Below are positions 7,269 to 64,000 of a DNA stretch of 64,000 nucleotides, piece by piece. The DNA is taken from contig NZ_FRBX01000001.1 in assembly GCF_900142715.1 (NCBI RefSeq), forward strand, positions 1-64,000, read 5' to 3'. Position 1 is the first letter of the stretch, and every line of letters begins with the position of its first letter. The position numbers were made by a program, and so were the translations under genes. The notes below the pieces were generated by a model. That model saw only the letters and a list, made by a program, of their open reading frames with translations, had not been told where the DNA came from and searched no databases. The stretch is from Flavobacterium pectinovorum (GTDB taxonomy: Bacteria > Bacteroidota > Bacteroidia > Flavobacteriales > Flavobacteriaceae).

Positions 7269-8327
7269 CTAAGAGACCTTGATTACAAGCTTTACGACAA
7301 AAATATCCTTTTTATTTTTAAATGAAAGCTTATAGTCGTTTTTATTATAACCTAATTCGAGTCTTTTTTTGACATTCTCTAAACCTATACCACTAGACTT
7401 GTTAAAATTGTCCTTATGTTGCGTAATTTCGGGCATAGGATTACTAATAGTGAAATGCAGAAAATCTCCTTTTACCTTGAATTTGATATCAATTAATACT
7501 TTCCCTGTGTTTTTATTAACGCCATGTTTGAATGCATTCTCCAGAAACGTCAATAATATAATAGGGCTAATTTCTTTATCATGAATGTCTCCCGAAATTT
7601 CCATATTTACTTCCAGGCGATCATCGTTTCTGATTCTTTCTAAATCCAGATAATTTTGAATGCATAGTATTTCATTTTCTAAACTTTGTCTGGTGCTTTT
7701 TGTGTCATACAACATATAGCGCATTAATTCAGATAGTTTAAGAACGATTTTTGGCGTTTTGTTTGATTTTTCTACCGATAAGGAATAAATATTATTAAGC
7801 GTATTAAAGAAGAAATGCGGGGAAATTTGAGATTTCAAAAAAAGCAATTCGGTTTCTAACTGAGATTTTTCAAGATCTGTAACTCTTTTTTGTTCTTTCA
7901 AAAAGTCAAAAGTAATCTTAATTGCTGTAACAAAAGTCATCACATAAAGTTCTCCCATCATCATATCAATAGTATAATTGAGTGTCAATTTATCTATCGT
8001 TTCAGGGCCTTCGGGCCAAACTTCATGTGTTATTAATAAATAGGTAAGATTAAATTTCAAAACTACCATTATAAAGATAGCGCATAAAATAGAAATAACA
8101 TACTGCAGGTATTTCTTTTTATAAACCAAATTAGGCATCAAAACCAAAATATTCAAATAACATAACGCCATGTGAATTGGAAAACCCAACAAATTTGTTT
8201 TGAACGAATAACCATAATCATTAAAATAACTTCCCCATCTAAAAGTATTAAATATGAAATAAGTTAACCAAAATATAATGTGATACTGCAATTGAATGCG
8301 ATATAACCTGCTTGAATTTAAAATCAT
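7269..8327 (-). CDS. LytS/YpdA-type sensor histidine kinase
   Basis: A 352-residue inner-membrane sensor kinase. About four transmembrane helices fill residues 12-145, with little extracytoplasmic sequence between them. A His_kinase (PF06580-type) domain follows, with the phospho-acceptor His171 in QISPHFFFNTLN, then a reduced HATPase domain with an N-box FLENAFKHGV and a G-box-like SSGIGLENVKKRL. There is no separate sensor domain, so the signal is probably sensed in or near the membrane. It is expected to phosphorylate the LytTR regulator encoded just downstream. Transcription is away from the GH92 gene at 8449. The ligand cannot be read from sequence. Confidence 0.93.
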   Translation of the reverse strand: MILNSSRLYRIQLQYHIIFWLTYFIFNTFRWGSYFNDYGYSFKTNLLGFPIHMALCYLNILVLMPNLVYKKKYLQYVISILCAIFIMVVLKFNLTYLLITHEVWPEGPETIDKLTLNYTIDMMMGELYVMTFVTAIKITFDFLKEQKRVTDLEKSQLETELLFLKSQISPHFFFNTLNNIYSLSVEKSNKTPKIVLKLSELMRYMLYDTKSTRQSLENEILCIQNYLDLERIRNDDRLEVNMEISGDIHDKEISPIILLTFLENAFKHGVNKNTGKVLIDIKFKVKGDFLHFTISNPMPEITQHKDNFNKSSGIGLENVKKRLELGYNKNDYKLSFKNKKDIFVVKLVIKVS

Positions 8328-8376
8328 AATAATGTGACGTTTTGTGACTTTTTTTGATGTTTATCTAAGTTTATAC

Positions 8377-8392
8377 GTCATCCGTCTAAATT
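8377..8392 (+). promoter_or_regulatory. Candidate operator motif, copy 3 (kinase / GH92 divergent region)
   Basis: GTCATCCGTCTAAATT, 56 bases before the GH92 start and about 50 bases before the kinase start on the other strand. It is the most divergent of the four copies but keeps GTCAT-NN-GTC. Confidence 0.4.
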
Positions 8393-8448
8393 AGTTTTGG
8401 TAAAAGTCGTATTTGTTTAAATTTAAAGTTAAATTAAGATTGTTTTAT

Positions 8449-10692
8449 ATGAAGAAATTTACTCTGCTTGTTTTGTTCGTCATTTTGGTTACAAGTTGCA
8501 AAATAAATGTAAACAAAAATAACCAACAAGATAATTTTTTTACTAATCACGTAAATCCTTTTATTGGTACAGGTGGTCACGGACATACTTATCCGGGTGC
8601 AACTGTTCCGTTTGGAATGCTTCAGGTAAGTCCTGACAATGGCATTTCGAGCTGGGATTGGTGTTCAGGGTATCATTATTCAGATTCTATCGTTGCAGGT
8701 TTCAGTCATTTACACTTAAGCGGAACAGGAATTGGAGATTTGGCAGACATCTTATTTATGCCTACAAATAAAAAACTGGATTTAACTACAAAAACAACTT
8801 CACGAGATCAATTACCTTATAAATCAAAATACAGTCATGTTAACGAAAAAGCAACACCGGGCTCTTACCAAGTTTTTCTTGAAGATCCTAAAATCAATGT
8901 AGAATTAACTTCTTCACAACGCACCGCATTCCATAAATATACATTTGCTAAAAACGACAAACAATCTGTTGTAATCGATCTTGGTTTTGCAATTAATTGG
9001 GATAAAGCCTTAAAAACTTCCATAACAGTTGAAGATCAATTTACTATAAGTGGTTATCGATATAGTATGGGCTGGGCAAAAAATCAAAAAGTATTTTTTG
9101 TTGCAAAATTTTCAAAACCTATTACAGAATCTGTTTTATTGGCTAATAAACAAATAGTTACAGGTAAATCTGCAGAAGGAGAAAACACAGCAGCACAATT
9201 ATTTTTTGATGCCAATAATAATCAGGAACTATTTGTAAAAGTAGCTTTGTCATCTGTTAGTGTGGCTAATGCAAAAGACAATCTGGATGGCGAAAGTTCA
9301 AATTTTGAAAACACAAAAACAAAGGCAGCTAATATCTGGAATGCTGCTTTAAATAAAATAGAAGTCGAAACGCCGGTCGACTCATTAAAAACCATCTTTT
9401 ATACCGCGATGTTCCACACCCAAGTTGCCCCTGTAGCCTATAGTGATAAAAACGGTCAGTTTAGAAGAGAGGATGATCAAATTGTTACAGCAAAAGATTA
9501 TACCGCTTATTCGACCTTATCACTATGGGATACTTTTAGAGCCGAAAATCCTTTATTGACTTTATTGGCACCAAAGCAAACATCAGATATTGTAAACTCA
9601 ATGTTAGCGTATTACGATACTAAAAAAATATTACCGGTTTGGACACTCTACGCCAACGAAACAAATACAATGACAGGATATCATTCTATTCCGGTAATTG
9701 TTGACGCTTATCAAAAAGGTATAAAAGGTTTTGATGCCGAAAAAGCCTATCAAGCCATGAAAGTCACCATGATGCAGGACGAGCGCGGATTGAATTTTTA
9801 CAAAAAATACGGTTACATTCCGTATAATTTACTTGACGAATCTGTTACCATAACTTTAGAATATGCTTATGATGACTGGTGCGTGGCACAAATGGCAAAA
9901 GCTTTGGGTAAAACGGAAGATTATCAATTTTTCTTAAACCGTTCAAAAGCTTATCAATATTTATTTGATTCGAAAACCGGATTTATGAGAGGAAAATCAG
10001 AAGATGGAAAATCATGGAACGAACCTTTTGATCCAAAACATTCTAATCACAGAGAACACACCGATTATACAGAAGGAAATGCATGGCAACACAGCTGGTT
10101 TGTGCCTCATAATGTAGATGATTTTATTACGCTTCATGGAAGTAACGAAGTGTTTACAAAACGATTGGAACAGCTTTTTACAGAAAGTTCAGAAATCACA
10201 GGAAGCAATGTTTCTGCAGATATTTCAGGATTAATTGGTCAATATGCACACGGAAACGAGCCAAGTCACCACATTGCTTATATGTTTAATCACGCCAATC
10301 AGCCGTGGAGAACGCAATATTGGGTGCGTCATATTTTAGACACACAATACAACACAACACCAAACGGATTAAGCGGCAACGAAGATTGCGGACAAATGTC
10401 GGCGTGGTATGTTTTCAGTTCAATGGGATTATATCCAATGAATCCCGCTTCTGGCGAATACGAAATAGGAAGTCCGATTTTCGAAAAAGCAAAAATCAAT
10501 CTCGAAGGAGGAAAATCTTTTGTAATCGAAGCAGAAAATGTTTCAAACAAAAACTTTTATATACAATCGGCAACGCTTAACGGTGTTCCTTTCAATACAA
10601 CAGTCATTACCCATAAACAAATACTACAAGGCGGAATTTTGCATTTTGTGATGGGAGCTGAACCCAATAAAAACTGGGGAACAAAACACTAA
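8449..10692 (+). CDS. GH92 alpha-mannosidase lipoprotein
   Basis: A 747-residue exo-alpha-mannosidase of family GH92, a calcium-dependent inverting family acting on eukaryotic-type alpha-mannosides. The start at 8449 gives a lipoprotein signal ending at Cys17 (LVTSC); the open frame reaches 8413 but the extra 12 residues are not signal-like. Visible family signatures are VNPFIGTGGHGHTYPGA at the N terminus, the SLWDTFRAENPLL segment, TEGNAWQHSWFVPH, and GNEDCGQMSAWYVFSSMGLYP near the C terminus. It heads the operon with the symporter and GH130, so it probably supplies trimmed core glycan for import. It is paralogous to the GH92 at 24721 but clearly divergent, suggesting different linkage preference. 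Confidence 0.95.
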   Translation: MKKFTLLVLFVILVTSCKINVNKNNQQDNFFTNHVNPFIGTGGHGHTYPGATVPFGMLQVSPDNGISSWDWCSGYHYSDSIVAGFSHLHLSGTGIGDLADILFMPTNKKLDLTTKTTSRDQLPYKSKYSHVNEKATPGSYQVFLEDPKINVELTSSQRTAFHKYTFAKNDKQSVVIDLGFAINWDKALKTSITVEDQFTISGYRYSMGWAKNQKVFFVAKFSKPITESVLLANKQIVTGKSAEGENTAAQLFFDANNNQELFVKVALSSVSVANAKDNLDGESSNFENTKTKAANIWNAALNKIEVETPVDSLKTIFYTAMFHTQVAPVAYSDKNGQFRREDDQIVTAKDYTAYSTLSLWDTFRAENPLLTLLAPKQTSDIVNSMLAYYDTKKILPVWTLYANETNTMTGYHSIPVIVDAYQKGIKGFDAEKAYQAMKVTMMQDERGLNFYKKYGYIPYNLLDESVTITLEYAYDDWCVAQMAKALGKTEDYQFFLNRSKAYQYLFDSKTGFMRGKSEDGKSWNEPFDPKHSNHREHTDYTEGNAWQHSWFVPHNVDDFITLHGSNEVFTKRLEQLFTESSEITGSNVSADISGLIGQYAHGNEPSHHIAYMFNHANQPWRTQYWVRHILDTQYNTTPNGLSGNEDCGQMSAWYVFSSMGLYPMNPASGEYEIGSPIFEKAKINLEGGKSFVIEAENVSNKNFYIQSATLNGVPFNTTVITHKQILQGGILHFVMGAEPNKNWGTKH

Positions 10693-10726
10693 AACCACGT
10701 AACTAACTAAAAAACAAATAAAATTA

Positions 10727-12604
10727 ATGGACATTATTGACGTATCAATCATCGTAGCCTATATCCTCCTCTCCGTAGGAATAGGAATTTGGATTTCAAG
10801 AAAAGCATCAAAAGGTTTAGATGATTATTTCCTTGGAGGAAAAACAATTAAATGGTATTTCCTGGGATTAAGTAACGGATCTGGAATGTTTGATGTTTCA
10901 GGAACTTCCTGGATGATTGGCGTACTGTTTTTATATGGCGTAAAAAGTTTTATGTTTATGTGGCTGTGGCCGATATGGAATCAGATTTTTGTAATGATGT
11001 TCCTTGCAGTCTGGATCAGAAGGTCAAAAGTAATGACAGGTTCTGAATGGATTTTAACCCGTTTTGGGAGCGACAGAGCCGGAAAAGCATCTCATATTAT
11101 CGTTGCCATTTTTGCCATTATTTCTACAATTGGTTTCATCGCTTACTTTTTTGAAGGAATCGGGAAATTTGTAACCATTATTCTTCCTTGGGATTTAACG
11201 CTTCATTATGGCGATTTAATTCTCCTGACTTCAGAAAGATCTTATGCCTTAATAATTATTTTGTTAACTACAATTTACACCGTAAAAGGCGGAATGTTTT
11301 CTGTAGTCGCTACAGAAGTGGTGCAATATTTAATTATGATCGTTGCCGGAGTTTTAATCGCCGGTTACGCTTTTATCAACTATACAGATTTACAAATCAA
11401 TTCGGTTATTACAGAAGAATGGAAAAATGTTTTCTTCGGATGGCAGTTTGAGACCCAATGGGGTGATAAATTTCAAACCTTCAATAATTTAATTGATTCT
11501 GAAGGATACAAAATGTTTGGTGCTTTTATCGGAATGACATTGTTCAAAGGATTTTTTGCCAGTGTTGCAGGACCAACACCAAGTTACGATTTACAAAGAA
11601 TTCTTTCTACAAAATCTGTAAAAGAAGCCGCTTACATGAGTGGTTTTACCAACCTTATTTTATTCATTCCAAGATATTTATTAATTACCGGAATCGTAGT
11701 AATTGCATTGGTAAACCTTGCGCCGGAGTTAAATGCCAATACAGGTTTAACAGGAGCTGATTTAGAATTATTAATGCCAAAAGTTGTTAACTTATACATT
11801 CCCGTTGGAATAAAAGGAATTCTTCTTGCTGGTTTATTAGCCGCATTTATGTCTGGATTCTCTGCTTTTGTAAATGCAGGTCCGGCTTATATCGTAAATG
11901 ATATTTATAAAAAATACTTCAAACCCGTTGCAACAAACGAACATTACATTAAGGTAAGCCAGATTTCTTCTTTCCTTGTTGTTGGTTTAGGAGTTTTCAT
12001 GGGATTCTTTGCAGACTCAATTAATTCATTAACCTTATGGATTACAAGTGCTTTATACGGAGGTTACGTAGCAGCCAATTTCTTAAAATGGATTTGGTGG
12101 AGATTTAACGGCTGGGGTTATTTCTGGGGAATGTTCGCTGGATTAGTCGTAGCGTCTTTGCAATTTGCTTTAGGTCAGGCCAAAGGAAGTTTATCTGAAG
12201 GTTCATTCTTATTTGAGTTAGCGCATGTGCAGGCAATTTATCTGTTTCCTGTAATTTTTGGATTTTCTATTTTAGGATGTCTTTTAGGAACATTCTTAAG
12301 CAAGCCAACAGATATGGAAGTTTTAAGATCTTTTTACAAAAACGTAAGACCTTGGGGATTCTGGAATCCGGTTTATAAAACACTAAAAGCAGAAGACCTG
12401 ACTTTCGAAAAAAACAATGATTTCTGGACAGATATGCTTAATTGCGCCATCGGAATTGTATGGCAGTCGAGTATGATTTTACTTCCGATATTTTTCATCA
12501 TCAGAGATTATCCAAAAGCAATTACAGCATTAGTTGTGTTTTTGGTAACAACAACGATATTGAAATTTACGTGGTTAGATAAAGTTCGCAGAATAGAAGA
12601 TTAG
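10727..12604 (+). CDS. Sodium:solute symporter (SSS family), probable oligosaccharide importer
   Basis: A 625-residue inner-membrane transporter with about 14 hydrophobic helices. It belongs to the sodium/solute symporter superfamily (SGLT/PutP type): ISRKASKGLDDYFLGGK near the N terminus, a GLSNGSGMFDVSGTSWM unwound-helix-type segment, and AAFMSGFSAFVNAGPAYIVNDIYKKY, a family hallmark. It lies 34 bases after the GH92 and just before the cytoplasmic GH130 phosphorylase. In this context the likely substrate is the disaccharide or small oligosaccharide left after mannosidase action, such as Man-beta-1,4-GlcNAc; that assignment is inference from gene order. Confidence 0.92.
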   Translation: MDIIDVSIIVAYILLSVGIGIWISRKASKGLDDYFLGGKTIKWYFLGLSNGSGMFDVSGTSWMIGVLFLYGVKSFMFMWLWPIWNQIFVMMFLAVWIRRSKVMTGSEWILTRFGSDRAGKASHIIVAIFAIISTIGFIAYFFEGIGKFVTIILPWDLTLHYGDLILLTSERSYALIIILLTTIYTVKGGMFSVVATEVVQYLIMIVAGVLIAGYAFINYTDLQINSVITEEWKNVFFGWQFETQWGDKFQTFNNLIDSEGYKMFGAFIGMTLFKGFFASVAGPTPSYDLQRILSTKSVKEAAYMSGFTNLILFIPRYLLITGIVVIALVNLAPELNANTGLTGADLELLMPKVVNLYIPVGIKGILLAGLLAAFMSGFSAFVNAGPAYIVNDIYKKYFKPVATNEHYIKVSQISSFLVVGLGVFMGFFADSINSLTLWITSALYGGYVAANFLKWIWWRFNGWGYFWGMFAGLVVASLQFALGQAKGSLSEGSFLFELAHVQAIYLFPVIFGFSILGCLLGTFLSKPTDMEVLRSFYKNVRPWGFWNPVYKTLKAEDLTFEKNNDFWTDMLNCAIGIVWQSSMILLPIFFIIRDYPKAITALVVFLVTTTILKFTWLDKVRRIED

Positions 12605-12643
12605 ATAATTAGCCAATTAGATAATTAGTCGATTAGATAATTA
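12601..12643 (+). repeat. Short degenerate tandem repeat of a TTAGATAATTAG-type unit
   Basis: Three imperfect copies of a 15-16 base unit (TTAGATAATTAGCCAA, TTAGATAATTAGTCGA, TTAGATAATTAAAAG) starting on the stop codon of the symporter. Probably non-functional spacer. Confidence 0.6.
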
Positions 12644-12655
12644 AAAGAACTTCGA

Positions 12656-12691
12656 CAGCTTTGTCAAAGTTTTAAACTTTGACAAAGCTTA
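12656..12691. repeat. CTTTGTCAAAG-family palindrome (copy 2)
   Basis: AGCTTTGTCAAAGT and ACTTTGACAAAGCT flank a TTTAA centre, a perfect 14-base arm palindrome. It shares its core with the elements at 6431 and 23137. Here there is no strong T run, so it may be an attenuator, a transcript-end stabiliser or a repeat. It sits between the symporter and the GH130 gene. Confidence 0.65.
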
Positions 12692-12806
12692 ACAACCCGG
12701 TTTGTCATTCCGAGGAATGACAAGATTGCGCGGAGCTTCAAATTTCAGAACAACAAACAAAAAAACAGCAAACAAAAAACAAACTATAATAATAAAGAAA
12801 GAGAGC

Positions 12807-13772
12807 ATGAGTACAATTCCTTGGCAAGACAGACCCGAAAACAGTAATGATGTAATGTGGAGATATTCTGAAAATCCAATTATTGACAGATACGCAATTC
12901 CATCATCAAATAGTATTTTCAACAGTGCCGTTGTTCCTTTTGGAGACGGATTTGCAGGTGTTTTCAGATGTGATAACAAAGCAGTTCAAATGAATATTTT
13001 TGCCGGTTTTAGTAAAAACGGAATCGATTGGGACATTAATCATGAACCAATCGTAATGCAGTCTGGTAATACAGAAATGATAGAATCAGCTTATAAATAT
13101 GACCCACGTGTGGTTTGGATTGAAGATCGTTACTGGATCACTTGGTGTAATGGTTACAACGGACCTACAATTGGTATTGGTTACACTTTCGACTTCAAAG
13201 AATTTTTTCAGTGTGAAAATGCCTTTTTACCTTTCAATAGAAATGGAGTTTTGTTTCCACAAAAAATAAACGGAAAATACGCGATGTTAAGCCGTCCAAG
13301 TGATAACGGACATACACCTTTTGGAGATATCTGGATCAGTTACAGCCCGGATATGAAATATTGGGGAGAACACCGTTTGGTGATGAAACCATCTCCATTT
13401 GAGCAAAGTGCATGGCAATGTACAAAAGTTGGGGCAGGGCCAATTCCAATTCTTACCGAAGAAGGATGGTTAATGTTATACCATGGTGTTATCAATACTT
13501 GCAACGGTTTCCGTTATGCAATGGGAGCAGCACTTTTAGAAGAAAATGCACCAGATCAGGTAAAATACAGAACACAGCCTTATTTATTAGGACCTGCAGA
13601 AATTTATGAGCAAGTTGGAGACGTAGGAAATGTGGTTTTCCCATGTGCTGCTTTACATAACATCGAAGAAGATAAATTAGCCGTATATTATGGTGCAGCA
13701 GATACTGTTGTAGCAATGGCATTTGGTAAATTAAGTGAGGTAATTCAGTTTACAAAAGATAATAGTTTATAG
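12807..13772 (+). CDS. GH130 mannoside phosphorylase (probable beta-1,4-mannosyl-GlcNAc phosphorylase)
   Basis: A 321-residue cytoplasmic enzyme of family GH130. The start at 12807 gives [13 protein letters not shown], typical of the family's N terminus. An upstream in-frame ATG at 12702 would add 35 low-complexity residues that run through a repeat and is rejected. Family segments visible are [37 protein letters not shown] and [20 protein letters not shown]. No signal peptide is present. GH130 members of this length phosphorolyse beta-mannosides; the neighbours (two GH92, GH20, glycosylasparaginase) point to Man-beta-1,4-GlcNAc from N-glycan cores, yielding mannose-1-phosphate and GlcNAc. 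Substrate is inferred. Confidence 0.92.
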
Positions 13773-54215: not shown

Positions 54216-54263
54216 ACAAAAAAGAGGTATTCTAAAATCATGTAGAATACCTCTTTTTTTTGT
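54216..54263 (+). terminator. Strong terminator closing the T6SS core operon
   Basis: AAAAAAGAGGTATTCTA and TAGAATACCTCTTTTTT form a 17-bp stem around AAATCATG, followed by more T. It lies 90 bases before hcp, so hcp needs its own promoter. Confidence 0.92.
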
Positions 54264-54331
54264 TAATACTAGTCATACAAAATAAAGAGGATTCTAAAAA
54301 AAAAACATTTTTTAACTTAATTATTTTTATT

Positions 54332-54727
54332 ATGGCATTTAAAGCAATTTTAGAATTCGAAGGAAACGAGTACCAAGTATTATTCTCAAAAGTCGATATG
54401 TTAAGACATACTGATGGTAAAGGAGCAGTTTCATCTGAAATTAAAGGAGGTAGATTAAACCTAAAATTAAAATCTACAGACAATACTACTGTTATCGAAC
54501 AGGCAGTAAACAGTCAGCACAAACCTGTAAGCGGAAAAGTAAAATTTTTCAAAGCAGATTCTGAACAAGTAATGAAAGAACTTTCTTTTGAAAATGCATT
54601 TATTGTATTCTTCAGCGAGCAACTTGATGCTATGGCAGAAACTCCAATGACTACTGAGATCACTTTCTCAGCAGAAAAAATTACATTAGGTAATGCAACA
54701 TTAGATAACAATTGGGCTAAAATCTAA
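54332..54727 (+). CDS. tssD: T6SS tube protein TssD (Hcp), Bacteroidota type
   Basis: A 131-residue Hcp-type protein forming the hexameric inner tube expelled with the effectors. The start at 54332 gives MAFKAILEFEGNEYQVLFSK; the earlier in-frame region includes the terminator and is rejected. The Bacteroidota form is recognised by FEGNEYQVL, SSEIKGGRLNLKLKSTDNT and ITFSAEKITLGNATLDNNW. It is monocistronic between two terminators, as expected for a protein needed in large amounts. Codon choice looks clean and regular, consistent with high expression. Confidence 0.94.
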   Translation: MAFKAILEFEGNEYQVLFSKVDMLRHTDGKGAVSSEIKGGRLNLKLKSTDNTTVIEQAVNSQHKPVSGKVKFFKADSEQVMKELSFENAFIVFFSEQLDAMAETPMTTEITFSAEKITLGNATLDNNWAKI

Positions 54728-55705: not shown

Positions 55706-55815
55706 AATAAAACCAACCTAAACCTAGTAAACGACCAAAATAATATTCTGAATAAACCGAAATAAGATATATGATTTAATGTGTATTGAAATATTTCAAA
55801 TTAATAAATTTTACC

Positions 55816-56679
55816 ATGGCCAAATCTTCATCCTCAGGAAAACATAAAAATGCCAGCTCATTAGGTGTTAAAGGTCCTCAATATAACAGGCAAACGGGTC
55901 AATGGGAAAATACAGATAAGTTGTCGGCGATGATGCAGCGAAGAAGCGTACAAGGCTATCGTGTTGCAGAAGATGTTAAATCTAAAAATTTAAGTTCAAC
56001 ATTTAAAAAGGAGAAACTTCTTCATCACGAGTTTTTGACAACAATAGCCATTGATATTTATGATTTTGCAAAAGCAAAAGGAGCATCTGGTAAGGGTGCA
56101 TTATTAGTTTTAGCGCAGGCAAGTTTAGAAAGCGGATATGGAGTATCTGCAATAAAAAACGGCGATTATAATTTATTTGGAGTAATGGGAAAACCTTCTA
56201 AAAGAAGTACCACCCACGGTAGTGTGAAAGATTATTCAAGCTTGGGAGGTTATCAGGCGGCTTTGACAGATTATTTTAATAAAATAAATAAAAACTGGAG
56301 TTATTTTTCAACAATAATAACTCAGGATAATATAACAGCAGATGATATTGATAAAGCTTTCAATACAGGAAAATATTATCCAACAGAAAAAGAAAGACAT
56401 GCTGGTAAATATACCTATAATGCCGATAAGGATAGTGCAGGTAAAAATCATTATGGAGAGCATTTATTAAATCAGATAAGCGATTTTAAAAAACGTTTTA
56501 AAAAGAGTTTAGACTATCAAGTTGAGGAAAATAAAGAAAGATTAAAGGAAATAAATGCCCTCTTAACAAACAACTCCATTTTATTCACAGATCCGGGAAA
56601 AATTAAACTAGAGGATGAAAAGAGATTACTTATTAGACAAAACGAAAAATTCAATTCTATTTCAAATGAAATTAACTAA
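55816..56679 (+). CDS. Glucosaminidase-domain protein, probable T6SS peptidoglycan-degrading effector
   Basis: A 287-residue protein with a glucosaminidase (FlgJ/GH73-type) domain at about 75-235: GALLVLAQASLESGYGVSAIKNGDYNLFGVMGK, where Glu105 is the likely catalytic acid, then YSSLGGYQAALTDYFNKI and GKYYPTEKERHAGKYTYNADKD. It has no signal peptide, unusual for a housekeeping wall hydrolase, and a 70-residue basic N-terminal region. It lies between hcp and vgrG and overlaps the next gene (a predicted lipoprotein) by 14 bases. Together these fit a T6SS effector that cleaves the beta-1,4 bond of peptidoglycan in target cells. The start at 55816 is preferred to 55786. The effector role is inferred. 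Confidence 0.82.
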   Translation: MAKSSSSGKHKNASSLGVKGPQYNRQTGQWENTDKLSAMMQRRSVQGYRVAEDVKSKNLSSTFKKEKLLHHEFLTTIAIDIYDFAKAKGASGKGALLVLAQASLESGYGVSAIKNGDYNLFGVMGKPSKRSTTHGSVKDYSSLGGYQAALTDYFNKINKNWSYFSTIITQDNITADDIDKAFNTGKYYPTEKERHAGKYTYNADKDSAGKNHYGEHLLNQISDFKKRFKKSLDYQVEENKERLKEINALLTNNSILFTDPGKIKLEDEKRLLIRQNEKFNSISNEIN

Positions 56680-57325
56680 TTTTTTTAAACTCAAAATAAT
56701 TTTAATTGTTTTTGTTTTTTTTGGATGTAATGCAAAGACCAAAGAAAAAGATATTTCAAAACAGATAGTCAAAAATGAGCAAAATAAATTAGAAATTGAC
56801 AGCCTTGAAGTTAAAGACAAGGTAGGAGCTTTATATACGATTAAGTATTATAATGATAGTATTCATATTAGTCAAAACAAAAAAGATATTATAAAAATAG
56901 GATATCTAAATCGATTCGATAAAGTATTTCCTTTAAATGGCCTGATTGTAAATGATAAATCCAGAGATTGTTATATCACAGATAATGAAATGCTTTTATT
57001 ACCATTAAGTGAGGTTAATAATAGAATAAATCTGATAGTAATTGATCTAATAAATAAAAAACAAATTAACTATCAATTTAAAGAGACATCCGATGATATC
57101 CTGACAACAGCTATCAATTCTTTTTATTTTAATGAAAAAAGCAAGATAATTATAAGTACAAATAGCTTGAATTATGAAGGAAAAACAACCGTTCATTATT
57201 ACAAACTAGGAAAAAAAACAATAACACATCAAGGAACTAAAGACCTGGATTTAACCGCTGAAATGCTTGAAAGCAATGAAGCTTTTTTTAAGTTTTTAAA
57301 TACAAATAACAATAATATTCCTTAA
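56666..57325 (+). CDS. Putative periplasmic immunity lipoprotein
   Basis: A 219-residue protein with a lipoprotein signal ending at Cys21 (VFFGC); the start at 56666 overlaps the effector stop by 14 bases (ATGAAATTAACTAA). A longer frame from 56615 lies within the effector gene. The mature protein is charged and beta-rich (YTIKYYNDSIHISQNKKD, YEGKTTVHYYKLGKK), with no family I can name. The translational overlap with a wall hydrolase that lacks a signal peptide, plus periplasmic anchoring, is the classic arrangement of a self-protection protein. It is 29 bases from vgrG. Confidence 0.72.
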   Translation: MKLTNFFKLKIILIVFVFFGCNAKTKEKDISKQIVKNEQNKLEIDSLEVKDKVGALYTIKYYNDSIHISQNKKDIIKIGYLNRFDKVFPLNGLIVNDKSRDCYITDNEMLLLPLSEVNNRINLIVIDLINKKQINYQFKETSDDILTTAINSFYFNEKSKIIISTNSLNYEGKTTVHYYKLGKKTITHQGTKDLDLTAEMLESNEAFFKFLNTNNNNIP

Positions 57326-57354: not shown

Positions 57355-59124
57355 ATGACACCACCAACAATAATTTTTGGAATAGATTCTAAAAAAATAA
57401 GCCACTTTACCAGCATTGAGTTGGTACAAGTAATAAACGACCATCATCGATTTGAAATCCTTGTTCCACATGCTGCTGTAGAAAGCCCTTTGGCATATAC
57501 GCTCGAAAATGCACAGGCATGGTTAGGTAAGGTAGTACACATTGTGCTCGAAGAAAATAATAATTTTCTGGGAGTGGTTACCAATATAGATTTCGATCAG
57601 GAAGACGGACATTCGGGAAATCATATTGTGGTTTCAGGCTATTCTAAAACCATATTGTTAGAGTCTGGTGAAAAATTACATTCCTGGGAAGAACTATCTT
57701 TAAAAGACATCATAAAAGAGGTAATAAAAAATGGTGCTGGAGAGCAACTGCAAAATGATATCAATCCTGAATATACCAGTAAGATGGATTATCAGAATCA
57801 ATATCTCGAAACAGATTTTCAGTTCATCCAGAGATTAGCAAAACAATACAATGAATGGTTGTATTATGATGGTGAAAAATTAATATTCGGTAAACCAAAA
57901 AGCTTTGATAGTCCTATATCGTTAACGTACAATAGTGAGATTTCTAAACTAAAAATATCTGTGCAGGCAGTACCTAATAAATTTAGTGCTTTTACATACA
58001 ATGAAGGTGCTGATAAACGCTACACTGCAAAATCAAAAGACACAGTAAGCGGATTGCCAAAATTAGGTAATGAAGCATTTGCAAGCTCAAAAGAAGTGTT
58101 TGCAACACCTGCGTTTACGCATGGTATAGTGAGTACCGGTGATGATTTGGTTTTAGAATCTTTCTTAAAAAAGAAACAGGAAAGCGCAGCAGCCAATACT
58201 AATTATGTTTCAGCAACTACAAAAAACTCAAAACTAAAAGTAGGAAGTATTGTTACCATACAATCAAGTGTTTTAGAAAACTCAAGTATGTTGACACAAG
58301 AAGTAGGCTCTTTTATAATTACCGAAATTAGTCATTATGCAACACATTTGGGAGAGTATGAAAATAATTTCAGAGCCATACCTTCAAAAGTACTAAGCTT
58401 GCCGGAACCCGATGTTGCGTATCCAATTGCTCAAACACAGCAGGCTGTAGTAGAAAGCAATACAGATCCTCAAAATAAAGGAAGAGTGAGAGTTCAGATG
58501 CTTTGGCAGCAAGGTACTCAAATGAAAACCGCCTGGCTGCGTGTCATGACGCCGGATGCGGGTAGTAGTGATAAAGTAGGAACCAACCGAGGAATGGTAT
58601 TTATTCCGGATGTAGGCGATCATGTAATGGTACATTTTCGTTATGGTGATCCTAACCGACCTTTTATTTTAGGAAGTGTTTTTCACGGAAAAAGCGGCGG
58701 CGGCGGTGGAAAAGACAATAACAAAAGAAGCTTTGCCACAAGAGGCGGAACTTCGCTTGTTCTCGATGAAGAAAAAAACACCTTTACGGCAACAGATCCA
58801 AGTGGTAATATGATAATGCTTAACGGAGACGGAACAATGACTATTTATGCCCCAAATAAGGTTGATATACAATCAAAAGAAATAAACCTTATTGCTGATG
58901 AAAAAGTAAGCATTAGCGGAGTAAATGAAGTAAATGTTGACAGTAAAAAAGTACTCGTTTCCGGGACAGATGAAGTGACCGTTAAAAGTGATACCCAAAT
59001 TACGGATGAAGCACCAAGTATTAATATTAAAGGAAAAAATACAATTCTGGCAGAAGGAATGGTCGTTGATATAGATGGTAAAACTATGACTAACGTTAAA
59101 GGCGGAATCGTAAATTTAAATTAA
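57355..59124 (+). CDS. vgrG: T6SS spike protein TssI (VgrG)
   Basis: A 589-residue VgrG. The gp27-like N-terminal part covers about 1-350 (ETDFQFIQRLAKQYNEWLYYDGEKLIFGKP is its signature), followed by the gp5-like OB fold at about 365-450 (GRVRVQMLWQQGTQMKTAWLRVMTPDAG ... GMVFIPDVGDHVMVHFRYGDPNRPFILGSVFHGK) and a C-terminal beta-helical needle of repeating hydrophobic strands (VDIQSKEINLIADEKVSISGVNEVNVDSKKVLVSG). There is no added effector domain. It is nine bases ahead of the probable adaptor and would carry the PAAR-like/Rhs cargo on its tip. Confidence 0.95.
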   Translation: MTPPTIIFGIDSKKISHFTSIELVQVINDHHRFEILVPHAAVESPLAYTLENAQAWLGKVVHIVLEENNNFLGVVTNIDFDQEDGHSGNHIVVSGYSKTILLESGEKLHSWEELSLKDIIKEVIKNGAGEQLQNDINPEYTSKMDYQNQYLETDFQFIQRLAKQYNEWLYYDGEKLIFGKPKSFDSPISLTYNSEISKLKISVQAVPNKFSAFTYNEGADKRYTAKSKDTVSGLPKLGNEAFASSKEVFATPAFTHGIVSTGDDLVLESFLKKKQESAAANTNYVSATTKNSKLKVGSIVTIQSSVLENSSMLTQEVGSFIITEISHYATHLGEYENNFRAIPSKVLSLPEPDVAYPIAQTQQAVVESNTDPQNKGRVRVQMLWQQGTQMKTAWLRVMTPDAGSSDKVGTNRGMVFIPDVGDHVMVHFRYGDPNRPFILGSVFHGKSGGGGGKDNNKRSFATRGGTSLVLDEEKNTFTATDPSGNMIMLNGDGTMTIYAPNKVDIQSKEINLIADEKVSISGVNEVNVDSKKVLVSGTDEVTVKSDTQITDEAPSINIKGKNTILAEGMVVDIDGKTMTNVKGGIVNLN

Positions 59125-59133
59125 AAATTAGAA

Positions 59134-60483
59134 ATGAATAACGCTCACAATCCTATTGCTGTAAGGGTCGAAAACATTCAAAAAATATGGAATAAGACCA
59201 GAGCAGCCAAACCAAAAGCGCAAGTGTTTAGTATGGTTTGTTATACCGAAGATTATCCATTGGTAGATAGTTTCATTCGGTTAGAATCTTCCGCTTACGG
59301 CAGATCAGAGGATTCGTTTGTAGCTTTTTCAATTGATTTTTATGATAAAAAAGACTTTTACACCACTATTATAGAACAATGGATTCTGGCTTTTGATGAA
59401 GACCTGAAAAAAAACATTGGATGGAATTGGGAAGATTTTGCTTCTTTTAAAGCTGCTCTTCAGGAGATTGATAAATTAAGTGTTGCTGGCTTAAAAGATT
59501 TTTACATCAACATGCTGGTAAGTTTCAAAAAGTTTGAAGCGAGAACAGGCAATCTTTTAATTGTTAGTTTTTTAATAAAAAAAGTAAGCAGCCTTGATTT
59601 ACTAAATGAAAGCATAAAAGAACTGATAGTTTTATTGCCTGAAAATATAGGATTCCTGTTTCTTGATTATAAGGAAAGGCAACAATATAAGGAAGTGATT
59701 GCCTCAGTAAAAGAAAAAGGGATCATGATCGAAATTCCAAATCAGGAAATAAATAAAGCGTACAAAGAAATAGCCACACAAGGAAACCCAAACGATCCGC
59801 AGGTGCGCTATAGAAAATGTTTATTTGAAATAGGCGAAGCGGCAAAAGATAAAAAGCAGGAAAAAGTAAAAAAACTAGGCAACGAGCTTATAGACATTAG
59901 CAAGAGTACAGGAGAAACCAGTTTTTGGGCTTCCTCTTATCTTGTTTACGCCAGTTTTTTATTTCAGTTTAAAGATGAGCAGGAACTTATTCATCAATTA
60001 TTGGATAAAGGGATAAAAATAACAACACCTCTTTATAAGGACAAACAAGATATTGCAGGTATTTTGATGCAGCTGCTCATGTACAAAGGCTCACATTACA
60101 GTATCATGGGGAAACGCGATACTGCTATAGATTATTTTTTAAAACAAACAGTTATAGCCAAAGAAGTCCAGCAGGAAATGCAGGTAATAAATGGCTATAA
60201 TTATGCACTGTTATTGGCTGCAAAAAAACGAGACCAACAATATAGTGAAATTTTAAACGATGCCTTCGAATACGGATATGCCTTGACAGATGAAGTACTC
60301 AAAATCATCAATTTTACCTTTATAGCCAACAGTTATTTAGAAAATGACCCAAAAATTGATTATTCAGAAAAAGAAGCTATTTCGGACAGAATGAAGTCAA
60401 TTTTTGGAAAAAACTGGAAAGACAATCCAAAACAAATTGCAAAACAAATACAAGAGGAATATCAATTAAACAACACCTATTAA
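59134..60483 (+). CDS. Helical-repeat protein between vgrG and PAAR-Rhs, probable effector adaptor
   Basis: A 449-residue cytoplasmic protein. The N-terminal half (about 1-210) is an alpha/beta region with FSMVCYTEDYPLVDSFIRLE, and the C-terminal half (about 220-420) is a run of helices resembling tetratricopeptide repeats (EVKKLGNELIDIS-type, HYSIMGKRDTAIDYFLKQTVIAKEVQ). I recognise no named family. In other T6SS systems, proteins encoded between vgrG and a PAAR/Rhs effector are chaperones that load the cargo. Here it is nine bases after vgrG and two bases before the Rhs gene, strongly indicating co-translation and that role. Confidence 0.7.
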   Translation: MNNAHNPIAVRVENIQKIWNKTRAAKPKAQVFSMVCYTEDYPLVDSFIRLESSAYGRSEDSFVAFSIDFYDKKDFYTTIIEQWILAFDEDLKKNIGWNWEDFASFKAALQEIDKLSVAGLKDFYINMLVSFKKFEARTGNLLIVSFLIKKVSSLDLLNESIKELIVLLPENIGFLFLDYKERQQYKEVIASVKEKGIMIEIPNQEINKAYKEIATQGNPNDPQVRYRKCLFEIGEAAKDKKQEKVKKLGNELIDISKSTGETSFWASSYLVYASFLFQFKDEQELIHQLLDKGIKITTPLYKDKQDIAGILMQLLMYKGSHYSIMGKRDTAIDYFLKQTVIAKEVQQEMQVINGYNYALLLAAKKRDQQYSEILNDAFEYGYALTDEVLKIINFTFIANSYLENDPKIDYSEKEAISDRMKSIFGKNWKDNPKQIAKQIQEEYQLNNTY

Positions 60484-60485
60484 TT

Positions 60486-63400
60486 ATGTTATTGACCGAT
60501 AATCATTTGACTATGGTCGTAGGGATAGATATCCATTTTACTACCCTGCCGCCTTTTAATCCGTTTCATCCTTACATAGGTATTGTTATTGATCCAGCCG
60601 ATTATATTCCTTTTTTAGGTACCAGTGTACATGTCAACGGTTTTAAGAGAGGGAACTCAGACACAGGAGGAATCATTATTCCGCTGGTGCACATTCCACT
60701 TTTTACCCCGCCATGGCTTATGACGCCTATTATCGGTCATGAAAGCATGAACTTTTTTGCTTCCCAAACCGTTTTTTCAGACAGTACCAGAATGAGTCCA
60801 AAAGGACATATGTTGATGACTTGTAATGATATCGGGATTCCGTTATCGCTGTCGTTGGGAAAAACCAAAATAGGCAAAAAAATGCTTCCTTTTGCGCCAA
60901 CGCTTTTTGCGCCAACCTCATTTTCTTTGCCAATACCAACGGGAAAACCAGTAATGGTAGGAGGTCCTTATCCGCCCGACTGGGGAGGTATGCTAACCGG
61001 ATTACTGGCCAGTATAGGATTCAGTACCCTGATGAAATATGGAAAAAAAGCATTCAATAAACTTCTAAAAGGATCCGTTGGTCCCAACTGGCTAAGTAAG
61101 CTTTTGTGTAAAGCAGGTTTTGAGCCGGTAAACCTTATCAACGGAGCTGTAATCTACGAAGGCAGCGATTTTGACATCACAGGCCCGATAGTCCTTAATT
61201 GGGAACGTCGCTGGTACTCAGATTCTGAGTATATCGGATGGCTTGGTCACGGCGTGCATTGTGTATATGACAGGGCAGTAGAGTTATATCCGGAAGATGA
61301 TGCCTTGGGGCTTCGCATGGATGATGGAAGAATAGTGGCATTCCCGTCACTATTGCCCGAAGAAGAATTTTACCTGCGTCAGGAAAAAACAACCCTTAAA
61401 AGAACCGCAGACGGATATCAGGCATACGAGCATAAAAGCAAACTTTTTTATGATTTCACCCTTTTTGACGGTAAAAAATACCAGCTTACGCAAATAACCA
61501 ATAACGATGGGCTGTGCATTATTTTTGAATTTTCGGCATACCGTTTAAATAAAATTATCGATACCGCCGGCAGGGAAATAAAAGTAAGCACAATAAACGG
61601 ACTTATCCAGAAATTAGAATTGGAGGGACCGGAAGGAGACGAACTTTTGATCGCTTATGAATATGATGAGCATCAAAACATGTCTGCCATTATAGATGCT
61701 TTGGGTAAACCAACTGTTATTAAATTCCAAAACCATCTTATGGTGGAAAAAACAGATCGTAACGGACAGACTTTTTATTGGGAATATGATTCGCAAAACC
61801 GCTGTGTACACACTTGGGGCGATGGCGGATGGCAGGAAGGCTGGCTCGAATACCATCCCGAAGAAGGCTATAACCTTGTAACGGATGCCAACGGAGCGGT
61901 AACCACCTACTATTATGAGCCCAGCCAACTGGTAACCCAGGTAAAAGACCCTATGGGCAACAGCATTTTTTATGACTATACCGAGTTTATGGAACTCTAT
62001 CGAGAAATCGATCAGGAAGGCCGAATCACCGGGTTCATTTACGACGAAAAAGGCAATAAAACAGGTACTGTTTACCCGGACGGCACAGAAGAAATGATGA
62101 TTTATGATGACGAGAACCGCCCATCGATTGCCATTGATCCCGAAGGACAAAAGACCATTTATTTGTACCATGCCCAAAACCCGAACCAGCTAAAAACCAT
62201 AATTGCACCGGACAAAACCAGTACCCATTTTACTTATAATGCTGACGGACTTTTAGCAACCGTTGCCAAGAATAATAACGAACTCGAACTGGTTTACGAC
62301 GAGCAGTACAACCTTATTGAATGGCGTGAAAACGAAAAGAAACTAAAAACATGGGAGTATGACCATCGTGGTCGCGTACGGGCGATCTACACTCCAATGC
62401 AAATGGCAGATTATTTTAGCTATGACGCTCTGGACAGAGTAAGGCAAATTGTAGAGAAAGACAGTAACGTAATACAGTTTAGCTACGATAGTTATGATGA
62501 TGTAGTAGCCTTAAAAGACAATAAAAACAGCATTAAGTTTACCTACACACCATTAGGAAGCCTTTCTACAAGAGAGCAAAACGGCGTAAAAGTTCGTTTT
62601 GACTACGATAAGATGGAACAGCTTGTTGGGATTAAAAACGAAGACCACGAAGCCTATTATTTTACAAGAAACAAAGCCGGATACATTGTAAAAGAAACTG
62701 CTTTTGACGGTATCGAAAAAAAATACAGCCGCAACCTTGCCGGAGAAGTCACGCGAATAGACCACGGAGACGGAAAATATACCGAATACGAGCAGGATGC
62801 CCTAGGGCGTATTACCAGGGCCGATTACCATGACGGTACCTGGGAAACCTATACCTACAATAAAAACGGACAACTGATAGAAGCCGTTAACCAAAATGTA
62901 AGCATCTACTTTGAGCGAGATGCCGTTGGTCGCATCATAAAAGAAACCCAGAAACAACAGCTCGATGCCAATGAAAATGGTATAACCCTGACATCAACTT
63001 ACAATGTTTTAGGACAGCGTACCAATTTAAGCACCAGTCTTGGCGCAGATATAAACACGCATTACAACCAAAAAGGAGAACTTGAGCGTATAGAAGCGCA
63101 AAGTAACGAACTTAAGGAACAGCACCAGGCTTGGGAAACTACCCTGAAACGTGACGAATCAGGGCGTGAAATAGAGCGTTTTGCCACAGGCGGGCTTCAC
63201 ATAAAAACCAGCTATAACAACAGCGGCAAGCAAAAAGAACAGGAAGTATTTGCCAATGGCAAACGCACCGGAGCGCGTTTTTATAACTGGGACACCAACC
63301 AGCAATTAAGAAGCGCGGTAAACCAAATGACCCAAAGTTTGACCTATTTTGATTATGACGATTTTGGAAACCTTGCCAAAGCCAGTTATGATGGAAAAGA

Positions 63401-64000
63401 AGAGCTGTACAAAACCCCTGATGCAGTGGGTAATTTATACAAAACTGCTGACCGCAGTGACCGTAAATACGGCAAAGGCGGGAAGCTGCTGAAAGACGAA
63501 AAATATTATTACAAATACGATAAGCTGGGGAATTTAATACACAAAAGCCCCCGTGATATTACCCAACCGCTTGTTTTTGAAAAAGCAACAAACTTCTTTG
63601 ATAAACTTCTAGGTAATAAAGCCGAAGAAGCAAGTTTACAAGAAGAACATGAGCAGTGGCAGGACGGAGATACCGCATATACCTGGCTCGCAAACGGAAT
63701 GCTCGAAAGCGTAACCAACCCGGATGGAAAAGTAGTAAGTTTTGAATACGATGCACTTGGAAGACGTACGGCAAAAATTGCAAACAAAGAAATAAATCGT
63801 TATGTTTGGGATGGAAATGTTCTTATTCATGAGTGGAAATATGATTTAAAAGAGAGACCAAAACTTATCGTTAGTGATGATGATTTGGTTTACGATAAAC
63901 CTGAGCCAATTGAAAATTTAGTTACTTGGGTGTATGAAGGTGGAAGTTTTGTGCCAAGTGCTAAGATTGTTGGCAACAACAAATTTTCTATCATTAATGA
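60486..64000 (+). CDS. PAAR-like/Rhs-family polymorphic toxin carrier, 3' end outside window
   Basis: An open frame from 60486 through the window end (at least 1171 residues, no stop). The N terminus is a PAAR-like spike-tip domain (about 1-165) with GIDIHFTTLPPFNPFHPYIGIV and FKRGNSDTGGIIIPLVHIPLF and a short hydrophobic pair. A DUF6531-type start of the Rhs shell follows (EPVNLINGAVIYEGSDFDI), then a long series of YD/Rhs repeats (YDEHQNMSAIIDALG, YDEKGNKTGTVYPDG, FSYDALDRVRQIVEKD and many more), ending in YVWDGNVLIHEWKYD near the window edge, typical of the approach to the Rhs core end. The toxin domain must lie beyond 64000. The GC content is visibly higher than in neighbouring genes. Confidence 0.93.
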   Translation, partial: MLLTDNHLTMVVGIDIHFTTLPPFNPFHPYIGIVIDPADYIPFLGTSVHVNGFKRGNSDTGGIIIPLVHIPLFTPPWLMTPIIGHESMNFFASQTVFSDSTRMSPKGHMLMTCNDIGIPLSLSLGKTKIGKKMLPFAPTLFAPTSFSLPIPTGKPVMVGGPYPPDWGGMLTGLLASIGFSTLMKYGKKAFNKLLKGSVGPNWLSKLLCKAGFEPVNLINGAVIYEGSDFDITGPIVLNWERRWYSDSEYIGWLGHGVHCVYDRAVELYPEDDALGLRMDDGRIVAFPSLLPEEEFYLRQEKTTLKRTADGYQAYEHKSKLFYDFTLFDGKKYQLTQITNNDGLCIIFEFSAYRLNKIIDTAGREIKVSTINGLIQKLELEGPEGDELLIAYEYDEHQNMSAIIDALGKPTVIKFQNHLMVEKTDRNGQTFYWEYDSQNRCVHTWGDGGWQEGWLEYHPEEGYNLVTDANGAVTTYYYEPSQLVTQVKDPMGNSIFYDYTEFMELYREIDQEGRITGFIYDEKGNKTGTVYPDGTEEMMIYDDENRPSIAIDPEGQKTIYLYHAQNPNQLKTIIAPDKTSTHFTYNADGLLATVAKNNNELELVYDEQYNLIEWRENEKKLKTWEYDHRGRVRAIYTPMQMADYFSYDALDRVRQIVEKDSNVIQFSYDSYDDVVALKDNKNSIKFTYTPLGSLSTREQNGVKVRFDYDKMEQLVGIKNEDHEAYYFTRNKAGYIVKETAFDGIEKKYSRNLAGEVTRIDHGDGKYTEYEQDALGRITRADYHDGTWETYTYNKNGQLIEAVNQNVSIYFERDAVGRIIKETQKQQLDANENGITLTSTYNVLGQRTNLSTSLGADINTHYNQKGELERIEAQSNELKEQHQAWETTLKRDESGREIERFATGGLHIKTSYNNSGKQKEQEVFANGKRTGARFYNWDTNQQLRSAVNQMTQSLTYFDYDDFGNLAKASYDGKEELYKTPDAVGNLYKTADRSDRKYGKGGKLLKDEKYYYKYDKLGNLIHKSPRDITQPLVFEKATNFFDKLLGNKAEEASLQEEHEQWQDGDTAYTWLANGMLESVTNPDGKVVSFEYDALGRRTAKIANKEINRYVWDGNVLIHEWKYDLKERPKLIVSDDDLVYDKPEPIENLVTWVYEGGSFVPSAKIVGNNKFSIIN

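What the first reader, a model, noticed from the sequence alone, without database searches (positions are those of the whole stretch)
59134..60483. Unnamed TPR-like probable adaptor between vgrG and PAAR-Rhs
It is spaced nine and two bases from its neighbours and has a two-part architecture (alpha/beta N half, helical-repeat C half). It resembles no DUF4123, DUF1795 or DUF2169 adaptor I know, so it may define a Bacteroidota loading-chaperone family.
Basis: inference. Interest (0 to 1): 0.58.

Follow-up and report, generated by a model that had tools for sequence, protein, structure and literature searches.

The report
T6SS Rhs adaptor with pseudo-ATPase fold
Between the spike gene and the toxin gene of a Flavobacterium protein-injection machine lies a gene for an unnamed helper protein that probably loads the toxin onto the spike and looks like a dead ATPase joined to a helical binding scaffold.

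Summary
The gene is real, at the stated coordinates, with 9- and 2-base gaps, and under purifying selection. It has no Pfam, NCBIfam or PHROGs match above chance. Relatives in 10 clusters at 50% identity (18-86% to the window protein) lie directly after vgrG with rhs following in 25 of 25 tabulated loci. The C half is TPR by family profile (E 6.5e-8). The N half, folded alone (pLDDT 77.7), matches AAA+/STAND nucleotide-binding domains (Z 12.3 over 173 residues), but 0 of 14 members keep a Walker A and no sequence profile supports the relation. The protein co-varies with the Rhs N-terminal module and the VgrG tip, not the VgrG body, while toxin ends change freely. In one natural chimera the VgrG tip, this gene and rhs are of another type together. 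Best reading: a toxin-agnostic, NTP-independent adaptor that seats the Rhs tip module on its VgrG. The partner's 'PAAR' label has no profile support. Function is untested, and linkage could explain part of the co-variation.

The parts
59134..60483 (+). the probable adaptor gene (449 aa)
59134..59775 (+). residues 1-214: AAA+/STAND-like nucleotide-binding-domain fold without Walker A
   Evidence: AF2 of this part alone pLDDT 77.7, pTM 0.78; VIA-align Z 12.3 to 8bob_C; Walker A in 0 of 14 members; no sequence support
59776..60480 (+). residues 215-449: TPR helical repeats
   Evidence: family profile against PDB, E 6.5e-8 to LGN TPR over profile positions 244-416; helices in the low-confidence model
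57355..59124 (+). cognate VgrG (589 aa)
   Evidence: PF04717 and PF05954
58702..59121 (+). last 140 residues of VgrG (tip), which co-vary with the adaptor
   Evidence: Mantel rho 0.56 against -0.14 for the rest of VgrG
60486..64000 (+). Rhs effector gene, cut by the window end; 60486-64658, 1390 aa, in the genome
   Evidence: PF05593, PF20148
60486..61115 (+). Rhs N-terminal module (210 aa) in the place where a PAAR tip would be; no PAAR or DUF4150 profile match
54260..54727 (+). Hcp/TssD of the same T6SS cluster
   Evidence: PF17642, E 1.7e-37

Best explanation
A dedicated cytosolic adaptor/chaperone of a Bacteroidota T6SS spike module. Its TPR half and its nucleotide-binding-domain-like half form a scaffold that holds the N-terminal tip module of the Rhs effector and helps seat it on the tip of the cognate VgrG before firing. 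It needs no NTP (Walker A is gone), it does not care which toxin sits at the Rhs C-terminus, and one copy may serve orphan Rhs copies elsewhere in the genome. Shown: gene order, co-occurrence, co-variation with Rhs module and VgrG tip, independence from the toxin end, TPR by profile, loss of Walker A. Predicted: the AAA+/STAND-like fold. Inferred: physical contacts, chaperoning, release before firing, service in trans.
For: Directly after vgrG and before rhs in 25 of 25 loci, in 10 clusters at 50% identity. In 12 of 12 genomes with the Rhs module, of a 249-genome genus sample. Mantel: adaptor vs Rhs module 0.67 (p 0.0003), vs VgrG tip 0.56 (p 0.0003), vs VgrG body -0.14 (p 0.78). L045: VgrG body 87% but tip 30%, adaptor 22%, Rhs module 34%; L039: VgrG 34%, adaptor 45%, Rhs module 86%. 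Toxin ends alike in only 2 of 45 pairs with adaptors 79-98% identical. No DUF4123 or DUF2169 match and no DcrB match over cut-off in 22 genomes with the gene. No stretch of the protein hydrophobic enough to suggest a membrane helix (maximum 19-residue mean 1.34). Known precedent: DUF2169 chaperones co-occur with vgrG and non-canonical tip domains (PMC11883445, abstract and one section).
Against: No experiment. The three co-varying pieces are contiguous, so hitch-hiking by linkage could give the pattern. Seven of 19 Rhs-module copies have no adaptor beside them. In L103 the Rhs frame lacks the module although the adaptor is there. The window protein alone gives no TPR hit. The AAA+/STAND call rests on models from 11 near-identical sequences, Foldseek E for the N half no better than 1.1e-3 and TM-score 0.50 to 8bob_C, and has no sequence support. 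The DUF4123 search had no control genome over the cut-off.
Confidence: 0.68

Rival explanations
1. Spike-assembly factor in the manner of Tvp proteins: it is needed to assemble this VgrG variant's spike as such, hence the machine that uses it, with effector loading only a by-product.
For: Co-variation with the VgrG tip remains after the Rhs module is taken into account (partial rho 0.33, p 0.007); Tvp accessory proteins are needed for assembly of T6SSs with their VgrG-PAAR spike (PMC13373197, abstract and passages); in L103 the Rhs lacks the module.
Against: The link to the Rhs module is the stronger one (0.67; 0.55 given the tip), and in L037 a second vgrG in the same stretch has no such gene.
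Confidence: 0.17
2. Co-secreted spike component or cargo: the protein travels with the spike instead of staying behind.
For: Same operon; secreted T6SS adaptors are reported (RIX, PMC10435454, title and start of abstract only).
Against: No toxin-like or spike domain found.
Confidence: 0.06
3. A STAND-like sensor or regulator that links T6SS firing or expression to a signal.
For: Predicted NBD plus TPR resembles STAND proteins such as 6mfv, Z 9.6.
Against: 0 of 14 members have a Walker A; I saw no DNA-binding or other output domain; tight position between vgrG and rhs.
Confidence: 0.04
4. Immunity protein for the Rhs toxin.
For: Immunity genes lie beside rhs genes; in gut Bacteroidales GA1 loci the gene before the PAAR-Rhs gene is labelled 'immunity family 10' (PMC4714493, passage; whether it is related to this family was not tested).
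Against: Toxin ends are alike in only 2 of 45 pairs while the adaptors are 79-98% identical.
Confidence: 0.03

Closest known systems
DUF2169 chaperones and Tvp complexes (PMC11883445; PMC13373197)
   Same: Encoded with vgrG and a non-canonical tip domain, required there to form the VgrG-tip complex; the present gene has the same kind of linkage.
   Different: No DUF2169 match (0 of 22 genomes); the partner module is not DUF4150 by profile; predicted fold is NBD plus TPR.
DUF4123 adaptors (Tap/Tec; recalled, and named in PMC13373197)
   Same: Small gene next to vgrG and an effector, thought to bridge a VgrG C-terminal part and cargo.
   Different: No DUF4123 match.
DUF1795 (Eag) chaperones
   Same: Load effectors with an N-terminal tip domain onto VgrG (PMC13373197 passage).
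   Different: No match over cut-off; 449 aa with a TPR half, against the 127-position DcrB model.
Pvc15 AAA ATPase loader of Photorhabdus virulence cassettes (PMC11495950)
   Same: AAA-type fold used to associate payloads with a contractile injection device (abstract).
   Different: Pvc15 has tandem AAA domains with a working ATPase; here one NBD-like domain, no Walker A, plus TPR; no homology claimed.
STAND proteins such as MalT (8bob_C; that chain C is MalT is recalled) and 6mfv
   Same: Predicted NBD fold (Z 12.3 and 9.6) followed by helical repeats.
   Different: No Walker A, no detectable sequence similarity in the NBD, no winged helix or output domain seen in the model.

Membership tests
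DUF4123 adaptor | PF13503 match | tested here: not met
   No match in the window protein at E<=1 or in 14 members at E<=0.01. Genome search 0 of 22, but its control gave none of 14 over the cut-off.
DUF2169 chaperone | PF09937 match | tested here: not met
   0 of 22 genomes with the gene, control E. coli over cut-off.
DUF1795/Eag (PF08786, DcrB) | PF08786 match | tested here: not met
   genome search 4 of 22 weak (E 1e-4 to 2e-3), 0 over cut-off, none of the four at the adaptor locus by coordinates.
TPR superfamily | TPR profile match and helical repeat fold | tested here: met
   Family profile to LGN TPR E 6.5e-8; TPR models hit up to 3 of 14 members each, best E 1.2e-9; the window protein alone has none at E<=0.01.
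AAA+/STAND NTPase | Walker A (P-loop) motif | tested here: not met
   0 of 14 members.
AAA+/STAND NTPase | NBD fold | tested here: met
   Predicted model only: all 50 listed VIA rows are AAA+/STAND-type chains by title, best Z 12.3; pLDDT 77.7.
AAA+/STAND NTPase | sequence profile match | tested here: not met
   Profile of 7 N halves against PDB and 7 members against Pfam: no AAA+/STAND hit.
T6SS effector adaptor (functional class) | genetic linkage with vgrG and effector | tested here: met
   25 of 25 tabulated loci.
T6SS effector adaptor (functional class) | binds VgrG and effector; needed for delivery; not secreted | not testable with these tools
   Needs bench work; co-variation is indirect.
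PAAR or DUF4150 tip (partner Rhs module) | PF05488 or PF13665 match | tested here: not met
   0 of 11 modules in Pfam at E<=0.1; DUF4150 0 of 22 genomes over cut-off; hhalign with 8 canonical PAAR proteins, probability 0.7%. Fold not tested.

The most novel reading that the evidence does not exclude
A T6SS adaptor family, unnamed in the libraries searched, built from an AAA+/STAND-type nucleotide-binding domain that has lost its P-loop, joined to TPR repeats. It chaperones a non-PAAR tip module of Rhs effectors, is exchanged between strains as one cassette with the VgrG tip and the Rhs, and serves several Rhs copies from one gene: a pseudo-ATPase loader, convergent in role with the active AAA loader Pvc15 of extracellular injection systems.
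Probability: 0.45. Interest if true: 0.7.

Novelty: new variant of a known kind. Interest (0 to 1): 0.56.

Why it matters
The papers found here do not describe how Bacteroidota T6SSs load large Rhs toxins; one states that the Agrobacterium adaptors Tap-1 and Atu3641 are absent from Bacteroidales T6SS (PMC10470768, passage). This family gives a concrete, testable candidate, a way to find Rhs effectors by their neighbour, and a natural chimera that points to the VgrG tip and the Rhs N-terminal module as the matching surfaces. A dead ATPase-like domain reused as a loading scaffold would be a further, unrelated route to the job done by DUF4123, Eag and DUF2169 proteins.

Tried and rejected
Single-sequence scans of the window protein in Pfam, NCBIfam, PHROGs and PDB gave only chance-level hits. 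Searches of viral contigs, plasmids and phages found no relative. The phylum search with the broad profile A3 reported 48 of 392 genomes, but 41 of them match only the TPR half; of these I read two (L104, L105), and a second, TPR-only hit in G088 (L106), none in a T6SS context; the 41 were dropped, the other 39 unread. The genome search misses divergent members: G533 was found only by hmmsearch in its Rhs locus, so prevalence figures are lower bounds. Sequence proof of the AAA+ relation failed; an AAA_16 scan of the own genome was meant to supply sequences for a profile comparison, which I did not run. hhalign of the Rhs module to canonical PAAR failed. An immunity role was rejected on toxin independence. 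The co-variation test used 13 of 25 loci; dropped were 11 near-duplicates of kept rows and L103, which has no Rhs module; without two more near-duplicates the pattern holds. Its split of the adaptor at residue 214 in every row is crude, and the stronger links of N half with Rhs module (0.86; C half 0.53) and C half with VgrG tip (0.63; N half 0.51) are only suggestive. L044 was left out because the gene there is in three frames, as its rhs is in pieces. VIA-align looks only at Foldseek's own candidates, so other folds are not excluded. The third Foldseek job and the 'viral' library were not used. No Proteobacteria were searched with the family profile.

Full report
WHAT IS THERE. The window is part of a 5.61-Mb genome (G000, contig C4). 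Ten named loci with 80-84% identical copies are titled Flavobacterium in nine cases and [Flexibacter] sp. in one. Around 43.5-64 kb lies a T6SS cluster: a ClpV-like ATPase (my reading of the sequence), Hcp/TssD at 54260-54727 (PF17642), a glucosaminidase-domain protein, VgrG at 57355-59124, the gene in question at 59134-60483, and an Rhs gene from 60486 that is 1390 aa long in the genome. Gaps are 9 and 2 bases. The window gene and 10 close copies are open and equal in length; dN/dS against the window gene is 0.056-0.083 (dS 1.2-1.9, near saturation) and 0.04-0.10 in four closer pairs.

FAMILY AND GENE ORDER. The single protein finds 4 of 100 relative genomes (the window's own included). A 13-row profile finds 15 of 249 genus genomes and 5 of 392 phylum genomes; a 14-row profile finds full-length members in 7 of 392 phylum genomes, one (G342) in the same class but not the same order. 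I tabulated 25 loci, the window and 24 more (18-86% identity to the window protein, 10 single-linkage clusters at 50%). vgrG is directly upstream in 25 of 25, with -4 to 17 bases between. The next ORF is rhs in 21, rhs after one 99-aa ORF in three (L035, L041, L042), and rhs after two small ORFs in one (L045). Caveats: in L034 the Rhs module and core are in separate ORFs, in L005 vgrG is in two ORFs, and L007, L043 and the window end inside rhs. A further locus, L044, has the gene and its rhs both broken. In L037 another vgrG of the same stretch, followed by an unrelated ORF, has no copy.

CO-OCCURRENCE. The Rhs N-terminal 210-aa module is found in 12 of 249 genus genomes, 19 copies. Eleven of the 12 were positive for the adaptor; the twelfth, G533, has a divergent adaptor in the same place, missed there and found by hmmsearch (E 1e-24). 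Twelve of the 19 copies have the adaptor directly upstream (broken in G629). The other seven (G000 C5, G338 C54, G627 C8, four in G559) have neither vgrG nor adaptor beside them in the stretch read, and all lie in genomes with an adaptor elsewhere (only 1.3 kb upstream was available for G338 C54). This suggests, but does not show, that one adaptor serves several Rhs proteins. Four genomes have the adaptor with a more divergent Rhs N-terminus (G058, G494, G651, G664).

CO-VARIATION. On 13 of the 25 loci, Mantel tests of alignment-score distances give: adaptor vs Rhs module rho 0.67 (p 0.0003); adaptor vs last 140 residues of VgrG 0.56 (p 0.0003); adaptor vs the rest of VgrG -0.14 (p 0.78); adaptor vs Rhs module given the tip 0.55; adaptor vs tip given the module 0.33. 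In L045 the VgrG body is 87% identical to the window's, identity falls to about 30% between residues 390 and 450, and the adaptor (22%) and Rhs module (34%) are of another type. In L039 VgrG is 34% identical but the adaptor 45% and the Rhs module 86%. So VgrG tip, adaptor and Rhs start appear to travel as a cassette. Linkage alone could produce part of this, since the three are contiguous. The toxin ends do not follow: among ten close loci with adaptors 79-98% identical, 2 of 45 pairs have clearly alike Rhs C-termini (scores 348 and 668; next best 78). That argues against an immunity role.

ARCHITECTURE. The full-length AF2 model is poor (pLDDT 57.8, pTM 0.43) but shows alpha/beta to about residue 204 and helices after; its best Foldseek match is 8bob_C, E 2.6e-4, rmsd 12.9. 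The C half is TPR by sequence: the family profile hits LGN/GPSM2 at E 6.5e-8 over positions 244-416, and TPR models hit some single members, not the window protein. The N half folded alone is better (pLDDT 77.7, pTM 0.78). Foldseek ranks RdrA, 8bob_C and ORC chains first, none at E<=0.001, TM-score 0.50 to 8bob_C. VIA-align gives 8bob_C Z 12.3 (rmsd 3.4, 173 aligned), 2qen Z 12.1, TnsC 8fcu_Q Z 12.0; all 50 listed rows are AAA+/STAND-type chains by title, among them ORC, MuB, BrxC, CED-4 and NB-ARC. That 8bob_C is MalT is recalled; its title names the maltose system. No member has a Walker A (0 of 14), and no sequence profile supports the relation. I therefore call it AAA+/STAND-like in predicted fold, not an NTPase.

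PARTNER. 'PAAR' for the Rhs N-terminus has no profile support: no such match in the window Rhs, none in 11 modules, DUF4150 over cut-off in 0 of 22 genomes (4 weak), hhalign probability 0.7% against 8 canonical PAAR proteins (the profiles are shallow). Canonical PAAR genes exist in 6 of the 22 genomes, in G000 on another contig. By eye the module has a DxH...PH..G...V.V.G pattern reminiscent of PAAR; a lead only. In L103 the Rhs frame lacks the module, and a stand-alone PAAR lies in the stretch.

KNOWN SYSTEMS. In 22 genomes with the gene: DUF4123 0; DUF2169 0; DcrB/DUF1795 4 weak, 0 over cut-off. Controls over the cut-off: none of 14 for DUF4123, so that negative is weak; E. coli for the other two. 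Nearest in role are DUF2169 chaperones, linked to vgrG and non-canonical DUF4150 tips (PMC11883445: abstract, opening and one results section), Tvp complexes (PMC13373197: abstract and passages), and Pvc15 (PMC11495950: abstract). Nine paper searches (listings) and passages of PMC3482391, PMC4714493, PMC10470768 and PMC5524665 showed no description of such a protein. The library lacks most subscription papers and holds no bioRxiv preprints, so a description elsewhere is not excluded. In gut Bacteroidales GA1 loci the gene before the PAAR-Rhs gene is called 'immunity family 10' (PMC4714493); whether it is related was not tested.

VERDICT. Real, conserved, and most likely a dedicated adaptor for Rhs loading, of a family unnamed in the libraries searched, with an unexpected pseudo-ATPase-like half. 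Function and contacts remain to be shown.

Noticed in passing
L045 (G664:C1:2228500-2246500), vgrG at 9904-11670 (-): Natural chimera: the first 390 or so residues of this VgrG are close to the window's (87% over the body), the tip, adaptor and Rhs start are of another type, with two small ORFs between adaptor and rhs.
   Followed up: partly
L065 (G000:C5:354000-368500), 8678-12813: A second, orphan Rhs with the same N-terminal module in the window's own genome, in two overlapping frames, without vgrG or adaptor beside it.
   Followed up: partly
L066, L067, L068 (G559): Four orphan full-length Rhs genes with this N-terminal module in one genome that has a single detected adaptor gene.
   Followed up: partly
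L035 8288-8587 (-), L041 9297-9596, L042 9343-9642, L045 7991-8622 (-): Small hydrophobic-looking ORFs (90-108 aa) between adaptor and rhs, only in loci with the longer, divergent Rhs N-terminus; role unknown.
   Followed up: no
window 55786-56679 and 56615-57325: Glucosaminidase-domain protein (PF01832) followed by an overlapping ORF without family match; both recur together upstream of vgrG in several relatives. Possibly a separate effector and immunity pair.
   Followed up: no
L044 (G629:C1:879000-897000), 7414-13039: Adaptor gene in three frames and its rhs also in pieces, as if both decayed together.
   Followed up: no
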